DNA from: Actinomyces viscosus
Lineage (GTDB): Bacteria > Actinomycetota > Actinomycetes > Actinomycetales > Actinomycetaceae
Assembly: GCF_900637975.1 (NCBI RefSeq)
Contig: NZ_LR134477.1
Span: forward strand, 1,798,001-1,862,000
Length of the DNA: 64,000 nt
Direction of reading: 5' to 3'
Part shown: positions 26,173-36,331 of the stretch, piece by piece
Position numbering within the stretch: the first letter of the stretch is position 1
Layout: each line of letters starts with the position of its first letter
Notes under the pieces: generated by a model
Database searches by the model: none
Told to the model about the DNA's origin: nothing
Seen by the model: only the letters and a program-made list of their open reading frames with translations
Position numbers and translations under genes: made by a program

Positions 26173-27042
26173 TCAGTAACCGGCCATCTGCTCGAGGCGG
26201 GCGATGCGCTTGTCCATCGGCGGGTGGGTGGAGAAGAGGTTGCGCAGGCTCCCGAAGGGGTTGGCGATCATCATCGAGGAGACCGGCTCCAGTCGCGGGT
26301 CCTGCCCCATGGGCACACGCGAGATACCCGACTCGAGCTTGCTGAGCGCACTGGCCAGGGCGAGCGGGTCCTGGGTGAGCTCGGCGCCGTCGTGATCAGC
26401 GTCGTACTCGCGGGTGCGCGAGATGGCGAACTGGGTGACGGTGGCGGCCAGGGGCGCCAGGAGGGAGAGCAGCAGGACGGCGATGATGTTGCCGCCGTCC
26501 CGGTCGCGCCGGTTGCCGCCGCCGAAGAACAGAGCCATGGAGGCCACCGAGGAGATGACACCGGCGATGCCCGCGGCCACCGAGGAGGTGAGGATGTCGC
26601 GGTTGTAGACGTGTGAGAGCTCGTGGCCCAGGACGCCGCGCAACTCACGCTCGTTGAGTAGCTGAAGGATGCCCTGGGTGCAGCACACGGCGGCGTGCGA
26701 GGGGCTGCGGCCGGTGGCGAAGGCGTTGGGGCTCATCGTGGGGGCCACGTAGAGGCGCGGCATGGGCTGGCCAGCAGCGGCGGAGAGCTCACGCACGATG
26801 GCGTACATCTGGGGCTGCTGGGCCTCGGTGACCTCGATGGCGCCCATGGAGCGCACCGCGATCTTGTCGGAGTTCCAGAAGCCGTAGGCGGTCTGCACCA
26901 GGCCGATGACCGGCGCGATGATCAGCCAGATGGCGGAGCCGGTCCCCCTGGCCAGCGCGTAGCCGAGCAGGAGAAGCAGGCTCCACATGCCGCCCAGGAG
27001 GACGGCGGTCTTGAGACCGTTGTAGTGGTGGGTCCTTGTCAT
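26173..27042 (-). CDS. htpX: HtpX-type M48 membrane zinc metalloprotease
   Basis: A 289-residue protease. Two N-terminal helices (about 12-30 and 35-55) lead to the cytoplasmic catalytic domain with H140ELSH144 (HExxH) and the third zinc ligand Glu in REYDADHDGAEL; two more hydrophobic segments (about 150-195) lie between. HtpX degrades misfolded membrane proteins in envelope stress. THPPMDKRIARLE at the C-terminus is a family signature. A truncated paralogue begins at 29155 with a near-identical first 35 codons. Confidence 0.95.
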   Translation of the reverse strand: MTRTHHYNGLKTAVLLGGMWSLLLLLGYALARGTGSAIWLIIAPVIGLVQTAYGFWNSDKIAVRSMGAIEVTEAQQPQMYAIVRELSAAAGQPMPRLYVAPTMSPNAFATGRSPSHAAVCCTQGILQLLNERELRGVLGHELSHVYNRDILTSSVAAGIAGVISSVASMALFFGGGNRRDRDGGNIIAVLLLSLLAPLAATVTQFAISRTREYDADHDGAELTQDPLALASALSKLESGISRVPMGQDPRLEPVSSMMIANPFGSLRNLFSTHPPMDKRIARLEQMAGY

Positions 27043-27663: not shown

Positions 27664-28941
27664 TCAGCCCAGCAGGTCGGCGACGTCGGCCGCGGGGAGG
27701 TCCAGGGCCTGGCCGACCGCGGCGGTGTAGAGCGTCCCGGCGTGGGTGCTCAGTCCGCGGGCGAGGTCGGGGCGCGCCGCGATGGCGCCACGCCAGCCCT
27801 CATCGGCCAGGGCCAGGGTGTAGGGCAGGGTCGCGTTGGTCAGCGCGTAGGTGGAGGTGTGCGGGACGGCTCCGGGCATGTTGGCCACGCAGTAGAAGAT
27901 CTTGCCGTCCACCTCGAAGGTGGGCTCGGAGTGGGTGGTGGGGCAGGAGTCCTCGAAGCAGCCTCCCTGGTCGATGGCGATGTCGACCAGCACGCTGCCG
28001 GGCCGCATGGTCTCCACCATGGCCCGCGTGACGAGGTTCGGGGTGCGGGCCCCGGGCACGAGGACGGCGCCGATGACCAGGTCCGCCCCGGCGCAGGCCT
28101 GGGCCACGTCGAGCTCGGTGGAGAAGCGGGTGCGGATGGTTCCGCCGTTGAGCTCCTCGATGCCGTGGGCGGCCTGGAATGCCTCCACCACCGGGATGAT
28201 CGTGGTGGTCTCAGCCTTGTTCCCTTCCCAGCAGCCGACCTGGAGGGGGAAGCCGGCCCGGTCGACCAGCAGGCCGACGATGACCTGGGGGTCGACCCTC
28301 CGCTCTTTGGAGTAGCCGACCCGCCGCAGGTCGTCCTCACGCTCGGCCTCGAAATAGAGCGTGGTCACGTCGTACAGGCACAGGGCCAGACCGGAGGTGT
28401 TGGTGACGTGCTCGAACAAGGCCCCAGAGATCGCCTGGCGGTAGCCCCGCTCCTGAGCGCGGGCCAGGGACGCGTACAGGGTGTTGCGGTGGGCCGGGGC
28501 CGGCCAGCCGATCTCGGACAGGACCCGGGGAGTGTCGGCCTTGGAGGTCGGCTCGACCAGGCGAGCGGCGACCATCTGCTCAAAGGCCTGGTCACCCCCG
28601 ACCGCCTCACCCAGCCCCAGACGCCTGTAGGCCGAACGGATGGCCTCGATCGGCCAGCCCGACCTGCGCGAGACGATCTGCGGCCTTCGCACCGCACCAC
28701 CGTCACCGGGTGCCTGACCACCCACCTCGTCAGCGTCGTCGTTGAGTGCCGGCCCCAGGTCCAGGACCTGCTGGCCGGCCAGGAGCCGCTGGCGCCCCAG
28801 ACGCATCAGCGCTGCCAGCTCAGCCTCGTCATGGGCCGACCCCAGGTGCTCCACGATCCGGCGCACACCATGGTCCTTGGCCACGACCTGCACGGCCGTG
28901 GCCCCCGAGACTGTCTTAACCTGACGCAGGTACGGACTCAC
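27664..28941 (-). pseudogene. ald: Chimeric frame: IS1634-type transposase N-part fused to alanine dehydrogenase C-part
   Basis: A 425-codon open frame made of two unrelated genes. Residues 1 to about 264 match the N-terminal half of an IS1634/IS4-type transposase (SPYLRQVKTVSGATAVQVV, CLYDVTTLYFEAE, GCWEGNKAETTTIIPVVEAF). From about residue 266 the sequence becomes the C-terminal part of alanine dehydrogenase (GTIRTRFSTELDVAQA, ADLVIGAVLVPGA, VLVDIAIDQGGCFEDS, NMPGAVPHTSTYALTNATLPY). The Ald catalytic N-domain and most of the Rossmann glycine motif are missing, so alanine dehydrogenase activity is lost. The junction lies near 28150. The fusion happens to stay in frame. Confidence 0.88.
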
Positions 28942-29047: not shown

Positions 29048-29155
29048 TCAGGTGAGCAGGTAGCCGATGAGGATGAGCAGGCCCCACATGCCGCCCAGGA
29101 GGGCGGTGGTCTTCAGGCCGTTGTGGTGGTTGGTGCCTCGGTAGATCGCCGACAT
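29048..29155 (-). pseudogene. htpX: 5' remnant of a second htpX gene
   Basis: From ATG at 29155 the frame reads MSAIYRGTNHHNGLKTTA, then LLGGMWGLLILIGYLL, and stops at once on entering the insertion element. It closely matches the start of the intact htpX at 27042 (NGLKTAVLLGGMWSLLLLLGYAL). The catalytic domain is gone. A paralogue or tandem duplicate of htpX was therefore cut by the IS insertion and a later deletion. Confidence 0.8.
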
Positions 29156-29503: not shown

Positions 29504-30238
29504 CTACTTCTCCAGATAATTCTGCCGCGTCCTCCCGATGAGGAGACACACCCCGACCAGAAGCGCCAGGAGCACGCCGTTCGCGCAGACTAGCTGAAGC
29601 ATCCGATATTCAGGATCCACCACGTACTGCCCCTGAAGCGGGATCATTCCGAGATAGTAGCTCGAGAAATCATCACCAGTCACTGCGCCCACGACCCAGT
29701 GATCAGCAAAACGCCTGACGAGGGAGAAATACAGCGTCGCGAACGCAAGAATTTGCATAAAGACGAACATGGCCCATGAGACCGAGCGCGCCATACCAGG
29801 CCCGGCGACCCGCTTGCCAGCAGAAGCGCCTATGAGCATCATCAACATGCCACAGGCTAGAGCGACCCCCTTTGCGATGAGCCCTAGGAGCACCGCACTC
29901 CAACTAGTCTCGCCTCGACCAGAATCCGGAAGGCTAACGACGGCGTACAAAACCATCAAAAACGACCAGAGAACACAACCGTGCAAACCCGCCATCTTCC
30001 ATCTCGGCAGTGGAGAGAGGAAGAAGATCCTCTCACTGCAAAGGGCCACATGCCGCACCAAGTAATCTAGCGCATACAATGACGCTCCGAATGAGAGCAG
30101 CATGACACCCAGCGCGTGCATCTGTGCCACCATTTGCCCAGATCCCACCCGCCCTGCGACAGCAACGACCAACGCGAGTACCAAGATGGGCAGGAAGAAC
30201 CGTCCATGACGACGCAGGACCATCCTCAAATCATTCAT
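29504..30238 (-). CDS. epeB: ABC transporter permease of the epipeptide-like cluster (EpeB/YydJ-like)
   Basis: A 244-residue protein with about six membrane helices (residues roughly 14-32, 40-60, 80-100, 112-140, 155-175, 215-235) and no recognisable domain beyond that of a small ABC-2-type permease. The ATG at 30238 is used; it overlaps the stop of the ATPase gene by eight bases (ATGAATGA), which argues for a tight two-component exporter. In B. subtilis the YydIJ pair serves the epipeptide operon, probably in export or immunity. Base composition is less G/C-rich than the core genome. Assignment rests on position and topology more than on sequence motifs. Confidence 0.7.
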   Translation of the reverse strand: MNDLRMVLRRHGRFFLPILVLALVVAVAGRVGSGQMVAQMHALGVMLLSFGASLYALDYLVRHVALCSERIFFLSPLPRWKMAGLHGCVLWSFLMVLYAVVSLPDSGRGETSWSAVLLGLIAKGVALACGMLMMLIGASAGKRVAGPGMARSVSWAMFVFMQILAFATLYFSLVRRFADHWVVGAVTGDDFSSYYLGMIPLQGQYVVDPEYRMLQLVCANGVLLALLVGVCLLIGRTRQNYLEK

Positions 30239-30920
30239 GTGCGGCCACCAAACGTTTAAATGCCATCTCGAGGGACCCATCACCGATCCGCCGAACATCG
30301 GCAACCTTTCCAGAGCGGAGCAGCCGCCCGTCCACCACCATCATGACAGCGTCGAAGACGCGCTCAACCCCCTCGATCAGATGGGTACTCAACAACATTG
30401 GAGCCTCCTGACATCGAACTTCGATGATGTTCTCGATCAAGCGATCACGAGTCAGGGGATCGACGCCAGCTAACGGCTCATCCAAGACATATAGTTTTGG
30501 CCGCCTCGCCATGATCAGAGCCAGATGCAAGCGCTCCGACATCCCTTTCGAAAGGCTTCCCACAGGCGCCGACCTTTTAATCGCGGACCCAGCGAGAAAC
30601 TCTTCCGCGACATCATCGCGAAAATCCTGGTGCCTCGCGCTAAACAGATCAATCGCCTGCCCAACTGTCATCCAGGAGAACAAGAACGGCTTATCTGGTA
30701 GATAGGCGATCTCATCTCGACTGGGGCACCTCAGCGCACCGTCATATCTCCCAATATCGCCACAGACCGTCTTGAACAACGTGGTTTTCCCGGCACCGTT
30801 CGGGCCAAACATGCCGACAACACCATCGTCCGCGTCTACTCTAAAACTCATGTCCGAGACCGCACGATGCTTGCCGTAAGACACCGAAAGGCGAATCCCT
30901 TCAACAACAATATCACCCAT
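30231..30920 (-). CDS. epeA: ABC transporter ATP-binding protein of the epipeptide-like cluster (EpeA/YydI-like)
   Basis: A 229-residue ATPase subunit with Walker A GPNGAGKTT (39-47), signature-like SLSKGMSER (122-130, replacing LSGGQ), Walker B LYVLDEPLAG (143-152) and the H-loop in LLSTHLIEG. The ATG at 30920 is fixed by GGAGGTGATC eight bases upstream, which overlaps the stop of the peptidase gene and implies translational coupling. It overlaps the permease downstream. The drug/peptide-export branch of ABC ATPases fits best. Confidence 0.9.
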   Translation of the reverse strand: MGDIVVEGIRLSVSYGKHRAVSDMSFRVDADDGVVGMFGPNGAGKTTLFKTVCGDIGRYDGALRCPSRDEIAYLPDKPFLFSWMTVGQAIDLFSARHQDFRDDVAEEFLAGSAIKRSAPVGSLSKGMSERLHLALIMARRPKLYVLDEPLAGVDPLTRDRLIENIIEVRCQEAPMLLSTHLIEGVERVFDAVMMVVDGRLLRSGKVADVRRIGDGSLEMAFKRLVAAHE

Positions 30921-30927
30921 ATCCAGA

Positions 30928-31737
30928 TCACCTCCAAAGGAACGACACGACAACGAAAATGATAATATAGGCCAATACCCCGAGCGAGACAATCCTCAGA
31001 ACCAGAATGGGCTTTGGCGCATCCGACCAGCCCTCGACTTCCTCAAGATCGAAGCACGCCAATAGCATACGTTGACCATCCGCATTCCACAAGGGCAACA
31101 AGTTGGTGGCGACAAAGATCATCACCAAGGCAGTTCCATATCTCCCCTCCTCACCCAGGCCCAGAACTTCCTGGCACAATACGAGCAGGTTCACGGCGAT
31201 CAAGTTAGCGAAGAGTCCGGCAGAGTGGCAGAGCAGCCTTTCCCTTCTAGGGAGAAGGGATACCTGATTCATTCTAACGAAGAATGCCGGCATGACCCAA
31301 TAGTTCATCTTGAATCCCACCTTGTCAGGACGCCTTCCGCACCATCGCAACGCCAGGACATGACCAGCCTCATGGATGAGCAGATTACTGACAACTAACG
31401 TCGCCGCCAGGACGAGGCCTCCGCCTCCGTTGAGCCTTTCTGAAGCCACGTCTGAAGCGAGATACCCCAGCAGCCATAGCAACCCATTGATCAACATCGT
31501 GAGAAACAGCATGACGTAGACGCCCAGCCATAGCGTCGACAGGCGAGAAGCCTTGTCCACCCAGGCAACAGGTCTCTCCCCAATCACCACAAAGGTCGTC
31601 TTGAAGTAGGTATCGCTAGCGCGATCATGTATCACAACACGATCTCCGTGCCTGACGATTTCGATGTCGTCCTCGCAGCACGACTGCCACGACGGCCGTT
31701 CTTTGAGTCGACTGAGTCGATCGAGTCGGTTTGACAA
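30928..31737 (-). CDS. epeP: M50-type membrane zinc peptidase of the epipeptide-like cluster (EpeP/YydH-like)
   Basis: A 269-residue membrane protein. A soluble N-terminal 60 residues is followed by helices at about 68-95 and 105-125, the zinc motif H122EAGH126 within the membrane, further helices, and LWNADGQRML (about 213-222), the NxxDG-type motif supplying the third zinc ligand in site-2-protease relatives. YydH in B. subtilis has this layout and is thought to cut the modified peptide. The start is TTG at 31737, 20 bases after the end of the disrupted epimerase gene, with GAGGGG upstream. It precedes the ABC genes. Confidence 0.8.
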   Translation of the reverse strand: MSNRLDRLSRLKERPSWQSCCEDDIEIVRHGDRVVIHDRASDTYFKTTFVVIGERPVAWVDKASRLSTLWLGVYVMLFLTMLINGLLWLLGYLASDVASERLNGGGGLVLAATLVVSNLLIHEAGHVLALRWCGRRPDKVGFKMNYWVMPAFFVRMNQVSLLPRRERLLCHSAGLFANLIAVNLLVLCQEVLGLGEEGRYGTALVMIFVATNLLPLWNADGQRMLLACFDLEEVEGWSDAPKPILVLRIVSLGVLAYIIIFVVVSFLWR

Positions 31738-31942
31738 GACGCTTCCATCCCCTCGGCTCAGCGCTCACTCACATATTGAGCCTTGTACTCCTCGAAATCA
31801 TTCCGCAACTCGCTGATTCTGCTCTTGTCTGCGAAGATCACGCTGCACAGATGACAGGCATCGACAACGGGAAAAGGCTCGGCGAATCGTTCATCTCCAT
31901 TCCTCTTGAGTTTTTCCACAAACCACCCCAGGCCTTCTTCTA

Positions 31943-33196
31943 TAGTGTGATTAAAACAAGATTCGTGTTGCTGGTTTTGTTGTTGGGTTGGTGATCGGGT
32001 ATTCGTGGGGCGTCCGATGTGGGGGTGTCGCTTTCTCGTGGGGTGCTTGGCTGCTGGTGCTGGCTTCTTTTGTTGTCGTCTCTTGTGTTGTCGGCGTTTC
32101 GTGTGAGCTCTCGGGTCGAGGGCGGAATATCATGCTGGGATGGACAGGGTCGTGGTTAGTGATGATGAGTGGACTGTTTTGCAGGGCTATAAGCACCAGG
32201 CGCCTTACAGGTTGATGCGTTTGAAGTCCGAGGCGGTCGTGCTGCTGTCCAAGGGTGTGGATACCGCGGTCGTGGCCCAGGTCGTCGAGCGCACGCCCGA
32301 GACGGTGCGCAGCTGGGCTCGGGAGTGGAACCGGTACCGCCTGGCCTCAATCCACACCGGTCACGCCGGCAACCTCAACGCCTCCAGGCTCACCGCCACC
32401 CAGCGCCAGGAGGTGGCCGGGGTACTGTCCCGGCCCCCGTCGGAGCAGGGCCTGCCCATCGGGTTCTGGGACGTGCCCCATCTGGCGGCCTGGGTCTACG
32501 ACCACTTCGAGGTGGAGTACGCCTCTGCCGCCTCCTACCGGTTCCTGCTGCACATGGCGGGCCTGTCCTTCCACCGCCCCCAGACCGTTGACCAGCGCCG
32601 CCCGCCCCAGGCGGACGTTGACCAGCGCATGAGCCAGATCCGTTCCGAGATCGTCCGCAAGTGGTCCGATCCCGAGGTGATGGTGGTGTGCGCCGACGAG
32701 GTGCGTATCGAGCACGAGGCGATCGTGCGCAGGGCGTGGATCCGCCGGGGGGACGCCGCCCGCCTGGAGGTCGACCGCCGCCGCCAGGCCCAGTCCTACA
32801 TCGGCTTCCTGCACGAGACCGACGGCACCGTCGACTTGATGACCCTCGACTGGCAGGACACCGGCACCATCACCCAGGCCCTGATCGACCTGACCGTGAA
32901 GCACCCCGACAAGAAGAAGATCGTCATCGTGTGGGACAACGCCTCCTGGCACCGTTCAGCAAAGCTCACAAACAGCCTCAAGACCATCAAGAACCTCGAG
33001 AGGATCCACCTGATCAACCTACCCGCCTACAGCCCCGACGAGAACCCCATCGAGCACGTCTGGAAAGAAGCAAAGGACAGTATCAGCAACCACCAAAGAG
33101 CCACATTCCCCCAAACCCGACAAGCATTCGAGACCTTCATCCAGGCAAACAAGTTCCCCTACCGACTCACAAAATAATCTCGTTTAAACTCCACTA
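31943..33196 (+). mobile_element. IS630-family insertion sequence with TA target duplication
   Basis: A 1254-base element with imperfect terminal inverted repeats (left TAGTGTGATTAAAACAAG, right complement TAGTGGAGTTTAAACGAG) flanked by TA on both sides (31941-31942 and 33197-33198). TA duplication is the rule for IS630/Tc1 elements. It carries one transposase gene on the plus strand with an A/T- and G-rich leader of about 195 bases. Its borders are confirmed by the exact in-frame repair of the host gene when it is removed. Confidence 0.92.
32140..33177 (+). CDS. IS630-family transposase
   Basis: A 345-residue DDE transposase. The N-terminal helix-turn-helix (about 28-65) is followed by the catalytic triad: Asp186 in VVCADEVRIEHE, Asp266 in VIVWDNASWH and Glu301 in LPAYSPDENPIEHVW, a DD34E spacing typical of IS630. 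The frame is intact, so the element may still be active. It is transcribed against the host gene. Alternative starts (TTG or GTG nearby) are possible but ATG 32140 gives a normal N-terminus. Confidence 0.94.
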   Translation: MDRVVVSDDEWTVLQGYKHQAPYRLMRLKSEAVVLLSKGVDTAVVAQVVERTPETVRSWAREWNRYRLASIHTGHAGNLNASRLTATQRQEVAGVLSRPPSEQGLPIGFWDVPHLAAWVYDHFEVEYASAASYRFLLHMAGLSFHRPQTVDQRRPPQADVDQRMSQIRSEIVRKWSDPEVMVVCADEVRIEHEAIVRRAWIRRGDAARLEVDRRRQAQSYIGFLHETDGTVDLMTLDWQDTGTITQALIDLTVKHPDKKKIVIVWDNASWHRSAKLTNSLKTIKNLERIHLINLPAYSPDENPIEHVWKEAKDSISNHQRATFPQTRQAFETFIQANKFPYRLTK

Positions 33197-34037
33197 TATC
33201 ATAATCTTGAATGCAAGGTTGCATTCTATGCGACGCGCCCCCTCCTCGATCGTGAGTTCATTGGCGTCACCAACCGAAAGAGCGCTGTTGATGACACCCA
33301 GCGAACAGCATGGGTAGACTTGGCCGTCACCCGAGAACAGCAAAACCTGTCCTGGGCACTTCAGGTTCTCGGTTGAGACATGATCGTACGTTATCTCGCA
33401 TGATGCGATGCCCTCGGCCTGCCCAACAGGTGTAATATCGAAACTGTTGATATGCACACCTTCTAGGAGGCCTTCTAGTTGGTCCAGCGTCTTACTGGCG
33501 GGCTCACTTCGCGACTGGCAGATGTTGACAGCGAATTCAATTTCGGGCGCGACATCCCTCACCTTGAGGATGTTCCTCACTCGCTCGATTGGCACATAAG
33601 GCAGATGAAAGGTGTCAGCACTGATCGTGATAGTTCGGACGCCAGCGTCTGCCAATTCTAGAAGAACTCCCCTGGCGCTCGCTTCCGTGATCCCCCAGAA
33701 TCCATTTGAAACGATCGTGCTTCGTTTGCCAGCTCGTTTCAAACGTCTCATCTGCTCCAGTATGAAGGACTTGCGCAGCAACGCCTCTCCACCAGTGAAC
33801 GCGACTATCTTGATCGACGGTGAGGCGATGGCTTCGTCGATCAGACGAACAACTGTAGCATCCTCTAAGTGCCTCTCATCCTTTGGGTGGGACGACACGC
33901 AGCAATGAGCGCATCTGGCATTGCACTTCATATGCGGAGCGATAATCACACGTTGCATTAGAACACCTTGATAGTGGTATCGAATTGGGCGATGGGTGCG
34001 GGCGCCTCCAGTGGCACCCGCACCCACTTCGCAGCCG

Positions 34038-34151
34038 TCACCAGCCAGCGGCAACCCAGTTGTTGCTGACAAGAACCCAACCAAGGTCATCGCTGTCAGA
34101 CAACTTGACGACTCGGTCGTCCACGATAAGCGCATCGAGCAGATCCTGCAT
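34038..34151 (-). CDS. epeX: Candidate epipeptide precursor (EpeX/YydF-like)
   Basis: A 37-residue peptide beginning MQDLLDALIVDDRVVKLSDS and ending DDLGWVLVSNNWVAAGW. The C-terminus aligns with that of B. subtilis YydF (DLWYFVKSKENRWILGSGH): DL, an aromatic pair, V-x-S, N-x-W or NNW, a hydrophobic residue, then G near the end. By that alignment Val28 and Val33 sit where YydF has its epimerised Val and Ile. GGGAGGTGAG lies just upstream of the ATG, a near-perfect ribosome binding site. It precedes the epimerase gene by 79 bases, the epeXE order. The frame is open to a GTG at 34305, so a longer leader (89 residues) cannot be excluded. Confidence 0.68.
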   Translation of the reverse strand: MQDLLDALIVDDRVVKLSDSDDLGWVLVSNNWVAAGW

Positions 34152-34849
34152 GATCTCACCTCCCTCAATCGAGCTCAATTGTCGGTCGATTGGCAACGCC
34201 AACGTCAGGCAGTTCACACCTTCAGCGCCAACCATCCGATCGATTTCGCTCCAGAGTACCACGGGTAGGGGATCGCGCACCATGCGGAAGTTCCCCGCAT
34301 GTCGCACATTCGTGCGGACTTAGGTGTACTACATCGCCCTTTGGCACCGCCAAACTCATCCGAAAGTATGACGGTCGCGACTCCTTCAAGGAGGCTGTGT
34401 CAGCAAGCCGAGGCCCATCTGCGACGCCTCGGCGGCCCCGGGCTCACCTGGAGCAATGATGCGGGAAGCGGATCTGCGCCGGGACGGAGACAGTCGCCGA
34501 TCGCGGCCCACGAGTGGGCAGCGCGGATATGACTTGGCCGCCCGTCGTGCCCGATCTTGGATGATCGCGGGCGGGGATTGGCCTCCGGCACGCACCCAAG
34601 TGGGACGTCCAGAGCGGCGCTGGGCGCTCCTGAGCGACCCTGGACCCTCGAGAGCACCGCCGGAGCGCTGCCCCCAACGTCCCTGCGCGCTGTAGCCGTC
34701 CCTTCTCGCGCCGTCGGGCCCGCAGAAACCGTCTCGGCCCGCTCCCGCGCCCTCAAACTGCGAGGATGAGGGCGCAACGACGGGGCGAGGTGCGGTGAAC
34801 CAGTCCGCCCGGTCTTCCGGGACCTCCCGGCCGCCCCTCCCCCGCTTCC
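34152..34849. other. Intergenic region upstream of the epipeptide-like operon
   Basis: About 700 bases between the candidate precursor start and the end of the ferredoxin reductase gene. The half near the precursor is less G/C-rich and has paired hairpins at 34281-34319; the other half is ordinary high-GC DNA with overlapping short frames on both strands and no family resemblance. It must hold the operon promoter, though no convincing -10/-35 pair was picked out. No regulator gene is present here. Confidence 0.45.
34281..34319. repeat. Two adjacent small hairpins upstream of the precursor gene
   Basis: CATGCGG (34281-34287) pairs with CCGCATG (34295-34301) across a 7-base loop; next to it GTCGCAC and GTGCGGAC can fold with one bulge and a 4-base loop (34301-34319). 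They lie about 130 bases before the 37-residue precursor frame. They may be an operator or an attenuator. They could equally be part of the coding sequence of a longer precursor leader. Confidence 0.35.

Positions 34850-36331
<1,482 letters not shown>

What the first reader, a model, noticed from the sequence alone, without database searches (positions are those of the whole stretch)
29504..34151. Epipeptide-type (epeXEPAB/yydFGHIJ-like) RiPP cluster in a high-GC actinobacterium
Five minus-strand genes follow the exact content and order of the Bacillus subtilis epipeptide operon: small precursor, radical SAM epimerase, M50 peptidase, ABC ATPase, ABC permease. The stop of the peptidase gene overlaps the ribosome binding site of the ATPase, and ATPase and permease overlap. 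Sequence support is strongest for the epimerase (CNARCAHC, TGGE, SNGFWG, YPCCS, C-terminal CxxC). The region is visibly lower in G/C than the genes around it, which suggests transfer. Epipeptides are best known from Firmicutes.
Basis: partly seen in the sequence, partly recalled or inferred. Interest (0 to 1): 0.93.

Follow-up and report, generated by a model that had tools for sequence, protein, structure and literature searches.

The report
Broken epipeptide cluster in Actinomyces
This Actinomyces chromosome carries an imported gene set that looks like a distant actinobacterial version of the Bacillus epipeptide system, which makes small antibacterial peptides containing mirror-image amino acids, and a jumping gene has recently cut its key enzyme in two.

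Summary
In detail: at 29504-34151 (- strand) lie a 37-aa precursor, a radical SAM epimerase, an M50 peptidase, an ABC ATPase and a permease, in epeXEPAB order. The epimerase gene is split by an IS630 element. Its two pieces match consecutive parts of the YydG/EpeE model. An intact relative in A. timonensis is predicted to fold like B. subtilis EpeE (TM 0.93) and keeps the hydrogen-donor cysteine. A profile made from nine other precursors finds the window precursor at E 3.5e-12.

Three corrections. (1) Not a close copy: the nine actinobacterial epimerases of known origin in my tree fall in their own branch, outside the classical Firmicutes clade; cores are shorter; scores lie below NCBI's naming cut-offs. 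(2) The ABC pair shows no family link to Firmicutes EpeAB. (3) The latest transfer came from an A. timonensis-like donor (96-100% identity per block inside, 77-89% in the neighbouring genes, plus a scar of the donor's htpX), not from Firmicutes.

In this strain the epimerised peptide is probably not made, while peptidase and ABC genes stay open. D-residues and activity are inferred, not shown. New variant of a known kind.

The parts
34038..34151 (-). epeX-like precursor, 37 aa; putative leader ends ...SDSDDL, putative 14-residue core GWVLVSNNWVAAGW
   Evidence: coordinates; profile E 3.5e-12; alignment; genome search
33993..34026 (-). stem-loop (14-bp stem) between precursor and epimerase genes
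   Evidence: z -5.60, 0 of 200 shuffles as low; A. timonensis has one G-U replaced by G-C; no T tail found
33199..33958 (-). epeE-like radical SAM epimerase, N-terminal piece: CxxxCxxC, SNGFWG, YPCCS with the H-donor Cys (EpeE C223 equivalent)
31941..33198 (.). IS630 insertion (1,258 bp counting the TA at both ends) interrupting the epimerase gene; 23-nt imperfect terminal inverted repeats
   Evidence: one of 15 full-length, nearly identical copies in the genome
32140..33177 (+). IS630 family transposase
   Evidence: NF033545 2.4e-53; DDE_3
31758..31940 (-). epeE-like epimerase, C-terminal piece, holds the last two auxiliary-cluster cysteines (CHLC)
   Evidence: TIGR04078 positions 257-308
30928..31737 (-). 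epeP-like M50 intramembrane metalloprotease (HEAGH and a distal D-G motif); start codon inferred
   Evidence: NF058609 3.4e-40; HExxH and DG invariant in ten proteins
30231..30920 (-). ABC ATPase in the epeA position, of a canonical type (best NCBI models LptB and DrrA)
29504..30238 (-). ABC permease in the epeB position; overlaps the ATPase by 8 bp
   Evidence: no profile link to the two Macrococcus permeases
29048..29155 (-). truncated 5' end of a second htpX, matching A. timonensis: scar of the donor
   Evidence: last 143 bases of the block 100% identical

Best explanation
The locus is an actinobacterial epipeptide-type RiPP cluster that arrived from an A. timonensis-like Actinomyces and was then disabled by an IS630 insertion in the epimerase gene. 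In the intact form a 34-41-residue precursor is made (shown: conserved gene; inferred: translated). A radical SAM enzyme of the EpeE type takes the alpha hydrogen from two hydrophobic residues of the core, and its Cys218 (EpeE Cys223) gives a hydrogen back from the other face, leaving D-residues (family and predicted fold shown; reaction and sites inferred: fourth core residue and the residue after the inner Trp). An M50 membrane protease cuts after the DDL motif and releases a peptide of about 12-15 residues (inferred). The operon's ABC transporter removes the peptide from the membrane or exports it (inferred). A strong stem-loop after the precursor gene, as in B. subtilis, would let precursor mRNA exceed enzyme mRNA (inferred). 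In this strain the epimerase is cut before its last two auxiliary-cluster cysteines, so the peptide should stay unmodified, while the peptidase and transporter genes stay open and may act as immunity (inferred).
For: Families. Fold of the intact relative: pLDDT 90.8; the nine best PDB matches are all EpeE chains (8ai1, 8ai2, 8ai3, 8ai4, 8ai6), TM 0.92-0.94, the tenth 0.59. Cysteines equivalent to EpeE C14, C18, C21, C206, C222, C223, C289 and C292 present in the intact relative and invariant in 31 aligned epimerases. Precursor; the L031 precursor passes NCBI's YydF cut-off (35.6 against 35) and L003 and L035 reach 30.3 and 30.6, a bridge from the Actinomyces ones to known epipeptides. Co-occurrence: epimerase, ATPase and precursor in the same 3 of 49 Actinomyces genomes (the precursor profile contains these three sequences or close copies). 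Tree: EpeE-type clade 99/97. Insertion. Transfer. Biology of the model system: passages of PMC8326336, PMC5682303, PMC7026026, PMC12871923, PMC7614699.
Against: No product or D-residue is shown. The intact epimerase scores 247.6 bits against NCBI's cut-off of 300, the window peptidase 138.2 against 225. The window precursor does not hit the YydF family, nor do those of L002, L034, L030, L032 and L004. EpeE Asp210 is Val in the Actinomyces enzyme. ATPase 14-15% identical to the Firmicutes one, permease without a profile match. The stem-loop is absent in two of 11 spacers folded (L031, L004), and 11 of 500 random 79-nt stretches of this GC-rich window fold as stably. A weak precursor-like match (E 3.3e-4) stands in G016, where the epimerase search found nothing.
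Confidence: 0.85

Rival explanations
1. The radical SAM enzyme is an EpeE relative with another reaction, for example a cross-link between aromatic residues of the core, and the product is not an epipeptide.
For: Cores are rich in Trp and Tyr; the enzyme is a distinct branch; Asp210 of EpeE is not conserved.
Against: The H-donor and auxiliary-cluster cysteines of EpeE are invariant in 31 aligned enzymes; predicted fold TM 0.93 to EpeE; hydrophobic residues stand at both epimerised positions of the precursor in most loci, though not clearly in L004 and L032.
Confidence: 0.1
2. The modified peptide is mainly a signal or a membrane-active self-regulator, and the ABC pair is its exporter, not its immunity.
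For: NCBI calls the Firmicutes ATPase an exporter subunit, and its precursor model is named as an exported signal (expor_sig); the ABC type differs between lineages.
Against: B. subtilis EPE permeabilises membranes and EpeAB is described as autoimmunity (passages of PMC7026026 and PMC12871923), although loss of yydIJ did not change the MIC in PMC7026026; EpeP is thought to do cleavage and export (passage of PMC10885120).
Confidence: 0.25
3. The strain is an immune non-producer: the insertion was kept because losing the costly enzyme while keeping the transporter pays among producing neighbours.
For: Peptidase, ATPase and permease are open and 98-100% identical per 250-base block to the intact A. 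timonensis copy, from L002 position 9012 on; an intact, nearly identical epimerase (P0001) stands for 170 member sequences in the protein collection; B. [quoted passage not shown]
Against: The insertion is young (copies about 100% identical), so retention of the other genes proves nothing; the element may also stop transcription of the downstream genes.
Confidence: 0.35
4. Chance resemblance of an unrelated small ORF and a radical SAM gene next to an ABC operon.
For: The window precursor alone has no significant family hit.
Against: Profile E 3.5e-12, same place in the nine other actinobacterial loci read, co-occurrence in 3 of 49 genomes.
Confidence: 0.01

Closest known systems
epeXEPAB (yydFGHIJ) of Bacillus subtilis and other Firmicutes
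   Same: Five-gene order; EpeE-type epimerase with the same cysteines and predicted fold; M50 HExxH peptidase; precursor with [DN]DL before an aromatic core and a Trp before the second site; stem-loop between precursor and epimerase genes (annotated epeX terminator in B. subtilis, abstract and passages of PMC12871923).
   Different: 28% identity to B. subtilis EpeE in the alignment; precursor 37 aa against 51 in Macrococcus, core 14 residues against 17 in B. subtilis, the two putative sites 6 apart against 8; ABC pair not of the Firmicutes type; host is an actinomycete; gene interrupted here.
Macrococcus plasmid epipeptide clusters (L038, L039)
   Same: Five-gene order; precursor annotated YydF family, epimerase annotated YydG family.
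   Different: As above; the L038 ATPase scores 292.6 bits with NF058610 (L039 not tested).
A. timonensis DSM 23838 cluster (L002)
   Same: 96-100% identical per 250-base block across the cluster, same place between a ferredoxin reductase gene and htpX.
   Different: Epimerase uninterrupted; one residue of the core differs.
Proteusin epimerases
   Same: Also install D-residues by radical SAM with a critical cysteine (passage of PMC8326336).
   Different: According to that review no significant homology with EpeE and only the radical SAM cluster; not compared here.

Membership tests
epipeptide cluster (epeXEPAB) | EpeE-type radical SAM epimerase with H-donor Cys223 and auxiliary-cluster cysteines | tested here: met
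   on the intact relative; the window has the same cysteines, but on two pieces split by IS630
epipeptide cluster (epeXEPAB) | NCBIfam TIGR04078 (YydG) curated cut-off 300 bits (a naming threshold, not biology) | tested here: not met
   Best family by far, but 247.6 bits for the intact relative, 231.1 to 292.9 for three others; window pieces 207.4 and 24.9
epipeptide cluster (epeXEPAB) | Small precursor of the EpeX/YydF type directly upstream of the epimerase | tested here: met
   but TIGR04077 itself is not hit by the window precursor: of ten other precursors scanned, three pass its cut-off (two Macrococcus, L031) and two come near
epipeptide cluster (epeXEPAB) | M50 peptidase EpeP with HExxH | tested here: met
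   NF058609 best family at 138.2 bits, below its cut-off of 225
epipeptide cluster (epeXEPAB) | ABC pair of the EpeA/EpeB (YydI/YydJ) families | tested here: not met
   ATPase 14-15% identical to two Macrococcus EpeA, NF058610 not among its best 25 of 189 families; permease profile comparison probability 0.1, with only two Firmicutes sequences in the profile
epipeptide cluster (epeXEPAB) | Gene order precursor-epimerase-peptidase-ATPase-permease | tested here: met
epipeptide cluster (epeXEPAB) | Two D-amino acids in a secreted peptide | not testable with these tools
   Needs mass spectrometry; sites only inferred from alignment
epipeptide cluster (epeXEPAB) | Membrane-active antibacterial product | not testable with these tools
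   Needs the peptide
IS630 family element | DDE transposase, terminal inverted repeats, insertion at TA | tested here: met
   both ends begin with TA. That IS630 elements target TA is recalled

The most novel reading that the evidence does not exclude
Actinobacteria have their own deep branch of epipeptides, mostly below current naming cut-offs: short cores of about 12-15 residues with the two D-sites six to eight residues apart, and an exchangeable transporter module (canonical ATPase plus permease in most, FtsX-type in some), so that precursor, epimerase and peptidase are the conserved heart and immunity is swapped per lineage. The window strain would be a recent recipient turned immune non-producer.
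Probability: 0.6. Interest if true: 0.62.

Novelty: new variant of a known kind. Interest (0 to 1): 0.52.

Why it matters
The passages I read describe epipeptides from Firmicutes. Intact actinobacterial versions with divergent short cores would give new D-amino-acid peptides, a second substrate-enzyme pair to test how an EpeE-type enzyme picks two sites at different spacing, and a natural comparison of transporter or immunity modules. The broken copy beside a nearly identical intact one in a second species is a clean case for testing whether non-producers keep immunity.

Tried and rejected
Recent transfer from Firmicutes: rejected, because the tree puts all nine rows of known actinobacterial origin in a separate branch. 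Other radical SAM families: all far below TIGR04078 for the N piece and the intact relative. L003 precursor against PDB sequences: only chance matches. Phage records: no match with P0010. Plasmid records: 13 matches, of which I read four: two Macrococcus epipeptide clusters, and Collinsella and Tropicibacter with other neighbours. Weak radical SAM matches in G001, G004 (first of two), G015, G024, G025, G048 and the second in G013 lack the YPCCS and N-[GA]-[FY]-W motifs; L025-L029 lack YPCCS; they were not counted as epimerases. Of eight regions fetched, L036 and L037 gave no ORF that fits the script's motif and were dropped. G100 and G043 carry full-length matches but I did not read their loci for neighbours. 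Promoter and terminator scan of 33900-34900: nothing. In the tree I chose 50 rows; short pieces (P0009, P0017), near copies and most Firmicutes hits were left out; 'Act' there also holds metagenome proteins of unknown host, and 'Firm' holds unlabelled ones, so only named or kin-ranked rows count. First spacer folds used wrong gene starts for the window, L002, L004 and L038 and were redone. Some starts were guessed (peptidases; L031 precursor).
Full report
WHAT IS THERE. The window is part of a 3.49-Mb chromosome held as one contig; the genus Actinomyces is inferred from the 100% match to A. timonensis and the kin search. On the minus strand, 34151 to 29504, five genes follow each other: a 37-codon precursor, a radical SAM gene, an M50 peptidase, an ABC ATPase and a permease. 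The radical SAM gene is cut by an IS630 element (31941-33198) whose ends carry a 23-nt imperfect inverted repeat beginning with TA. It is one of fifteen full-length copies about 100% identical to each other in the genome, so the insertion is young.

THE EPIMERASE. The N-terminal piece gives TIGR04078, YydG peptide epimerase, at 3.5e-61, the next family at 5.8e-12; the C-terminal piece gives positions 257-308 of the same 309-position model at 1.2e-5. Among PDB sequences only EpeE/YydG is hit at 0.001 (3 of 3 distinct sequences). The uninterrupted relative of A. timonensis (P0087, 314 aa) was modelled from a 31-row alignment at pLDDT 90.8; the first nine Foldseek matches are all B. subtilis EpeE chains, TM 0.92-0.94 at 28-29% identity, and the tenth has 0.59. 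Its cysteines line up with EpeE C14, C18, C21, C206, C222, C223, C289 and C292, invariant in the alignment. Cys223 is the hydrogen donor (passage of PMC5682303). Asp210, mutated in one EpeE structure (8ai6), is Val here; I do not know its role. In the window the last two of these cysteines lie beyond the insertion, so the enzyme should be dead (inference).

THE PRECURSOR. MQDLLDALIVDDRVVKLSDSDDLGWVLVSNNWVAAGW has no NCBI family hit near a cut-off. Nine other actinobacterial loci carry a small ORF at the same place: L002, L034, L030, L031, L032 and its near copy L033, L035, L003, L004. Their leaders end in DDL or DDH before an aromatic or Gly-aromatic core. B. subtilis secretes WYFV(D)KSKENRWI(D)LGSGH (passage of PMC7026026) after a 32-residue leader (passage of PMC8326336); the two annotated Macrococcus precursors have NDL there. 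The L031 precursor passes the YydF cut-off (35.6 bits against 35) and L003 and L035 reach 30.3 and 30.6, while those of L002, L034, L030, L032 and L004 do not hit it. A profile of nine precursors without window and A. timonensis finds the window ORF at 3.5e-12, the next of 1,311 segments at 0.3. By alignment the two D-sites would be the Leu at core position 4 and the Val after the inner Trp, six residues apart against eight in B. subtilis; this is inference.

PEPTIDASE AND ABC. The peptidase has HExxH and a distal D-G pair, invariant in ten aligned proteins; its best family is NF058609 at 138.2 bits, under the cut-off of 225. The ATPase is of a canonical type (best NCBI models LptB and DrrA) and 14-15% identical to two Macrococcus EpeA, one of which scores 292.6 with NF058610. 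The permeases do not match in a profile comparison (probability 0.1, only two Firmicutes sequences). L032/L033 have an FtsX-type permease with an ATPase instead (FtsX domain in L032); the ORFs after the L004 peptidase look alike but were not scanned. So the transporter seems to be replaced between lineages.

THE SPACER. Between precursor and epimerase lies a 14-bp stem-loop (z -5.60, 0 of 200 shuffles); 9 of 11 spacers folded have z below -2.9, L031 (-0.78) and L004 (0.14) do not. Energy alone is less striking: 11 of 500 random 79-nt stretches of this window are as stable. B. subtilis has an annotated terminator structure in the same place, flanked by binding sites of the sRNA FsrA (abstract and passages of PMC12871923). 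No terminator-like T tail was found here.

DISTRIBUTION. Among 49 Actinomyces genomes the epimerase (56% identity or more), the ATPase and the precursor are found in the same three, G000, G013 and G043. Nine of 49 match the epimerase at 0.001; the other six match only in the radical SAM core. The precursor profile holds the window's, A. timonensis' and G013's own sequences, so it shows absence elsewhere better than presence; one weak match (3.3e-4) stands in G016. In the family 10 of 200 genomes match the epimerase profile at 1e-20, seven of them beyond the core (the window's own stops at the insertion); in the order 6 of 396, five beyond the core; in the phylum sample 5 of 396, only the window's own beyond the core. 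The samples overlap, and in the last two at most five candidates per genome were scored. In G013 the epimerase frame departs from its relative P0007 before the C-terminal cysteines, so two of the three Actinomyces copies look damaged; a sequencing error in G013 is not excluded. An intact protein nearly identical to the window's (P0001) stands for 170 member sequences.

ORIGIN. In the tree of 50 rows I chose, the EpeE-type clade has support 99/97. Within it 13 rows with the named Firmicutes form one clade (100/100); three unlabelled proteins form another (96/90); all nine rows of known actinobacterial origin lie in a third (97/89) with metagenome proteins and one unlabelled protein of the Firmicutes search, P0071. 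The root is drawn at the midpoint, one metagenome row (P0018) falls outside, L032 has a long branch, and the window row is its N piece only. The cluster has 0.548 GC, the rest of the window 0.700. Against A. timonensis the cluster is 96-100% identical per 250-base block, the block just downstream 88%, then 100% up to the break in htpX; the reductase side is 81-89% and the window's own htpX 77-85%. The window also has a truncated second htpX start (29048-29155) like the A. timonensis gene, and further on its own GNAT gene and full htpX. In 10 of 29 other Actinomyces loci the reductase gene lies within 1.5 kb of htpX with no cluster gene between; in the other 19 it was not found within the fetched flank; none of the 29 showed a cluster gene (30 of 49 genomes had loci). 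The simplest history: an older gain of a lower-GC cluster within Actinomycetaceae, then a recent import from an A. timonensis-like donor, then IS630.

FUNCTION. By analogy the intact form makes a short D-residue peptide acting on membranes (abstract of PMC7026026). EpeAB is described as autoimmunity in B. subtilis (passage of PMC12871923), but in PMC7026026 loss of the transporter left the MIC unchanged and LiaIH mattered more. B. [quoted passage not shown] The window strain fits that second state, which remains a hypothesis. I file the locus as epipeptide-type: it works like epeXEPAB, but its ABC pair fails that family's test.

NOVELTY. My searches (several listings were capped, at 40 of 45 papers) listed no paper that I could recognise, from title or start of abstract, as describing epipeptides of Actinomyces. 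The one paper with both words (PMC7616364) uses epipeptide in a reference and a table row for EpeX. The library lacks most subscription papers, among them the 2021 distribution study. One source already names a related protein YydG family (P0014), while NCBI names the Cellulosimicrobium enzyme only 'radical SAM protein' (P0010). I rate it a new variant of a known kind.

Noticed in passing
27664-28941 (-): A 425-codon ORF looks like a fusion of transposase-like N-terminal sequence (resemblance recalled, no Pfam hit) with the C-terminal domain of alanine dehydrogenase (PF01262, 4.1e-51).
   Followed up: partly
26173-27042 and 29048-29155 (-): A full native htpX and the truncated start of a second, A. 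timonensis-like htpX lie 2 kb apart: footprint of the import.
   Followed up: yes
31941-33198 and 14 other places of G000: IS630 has 15 full-length nearly identical copies in this chromosome, so a recent burst may have hit other genes.
   Followed up: no
L034:2995-3945: The epimerase frame of another Actinomyces (G013) also departs from its relatives before the C-terminal cysteines.
   Followed up: partly
L032, L033 and L004: Epipeptide-like clusters with FtsX-type ABC genes (domain tested in L032 only); the L032 precursor core holds cysteines, which B. subtilis EPE lacks.
   Followed up: no
L031:5983-6087: An Actinomycetaceae precursor (G066) with core WYFIKKGGNWILGSG, very close to the B. 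subtilis epipeptide: a good first candidate for chemistry.
   Followed up: partly
L040:4031-6146: Collinsella megaplasmid: a distantly related radical SAM-like protein followed by a methyltransferase gene.
   Followed up: no
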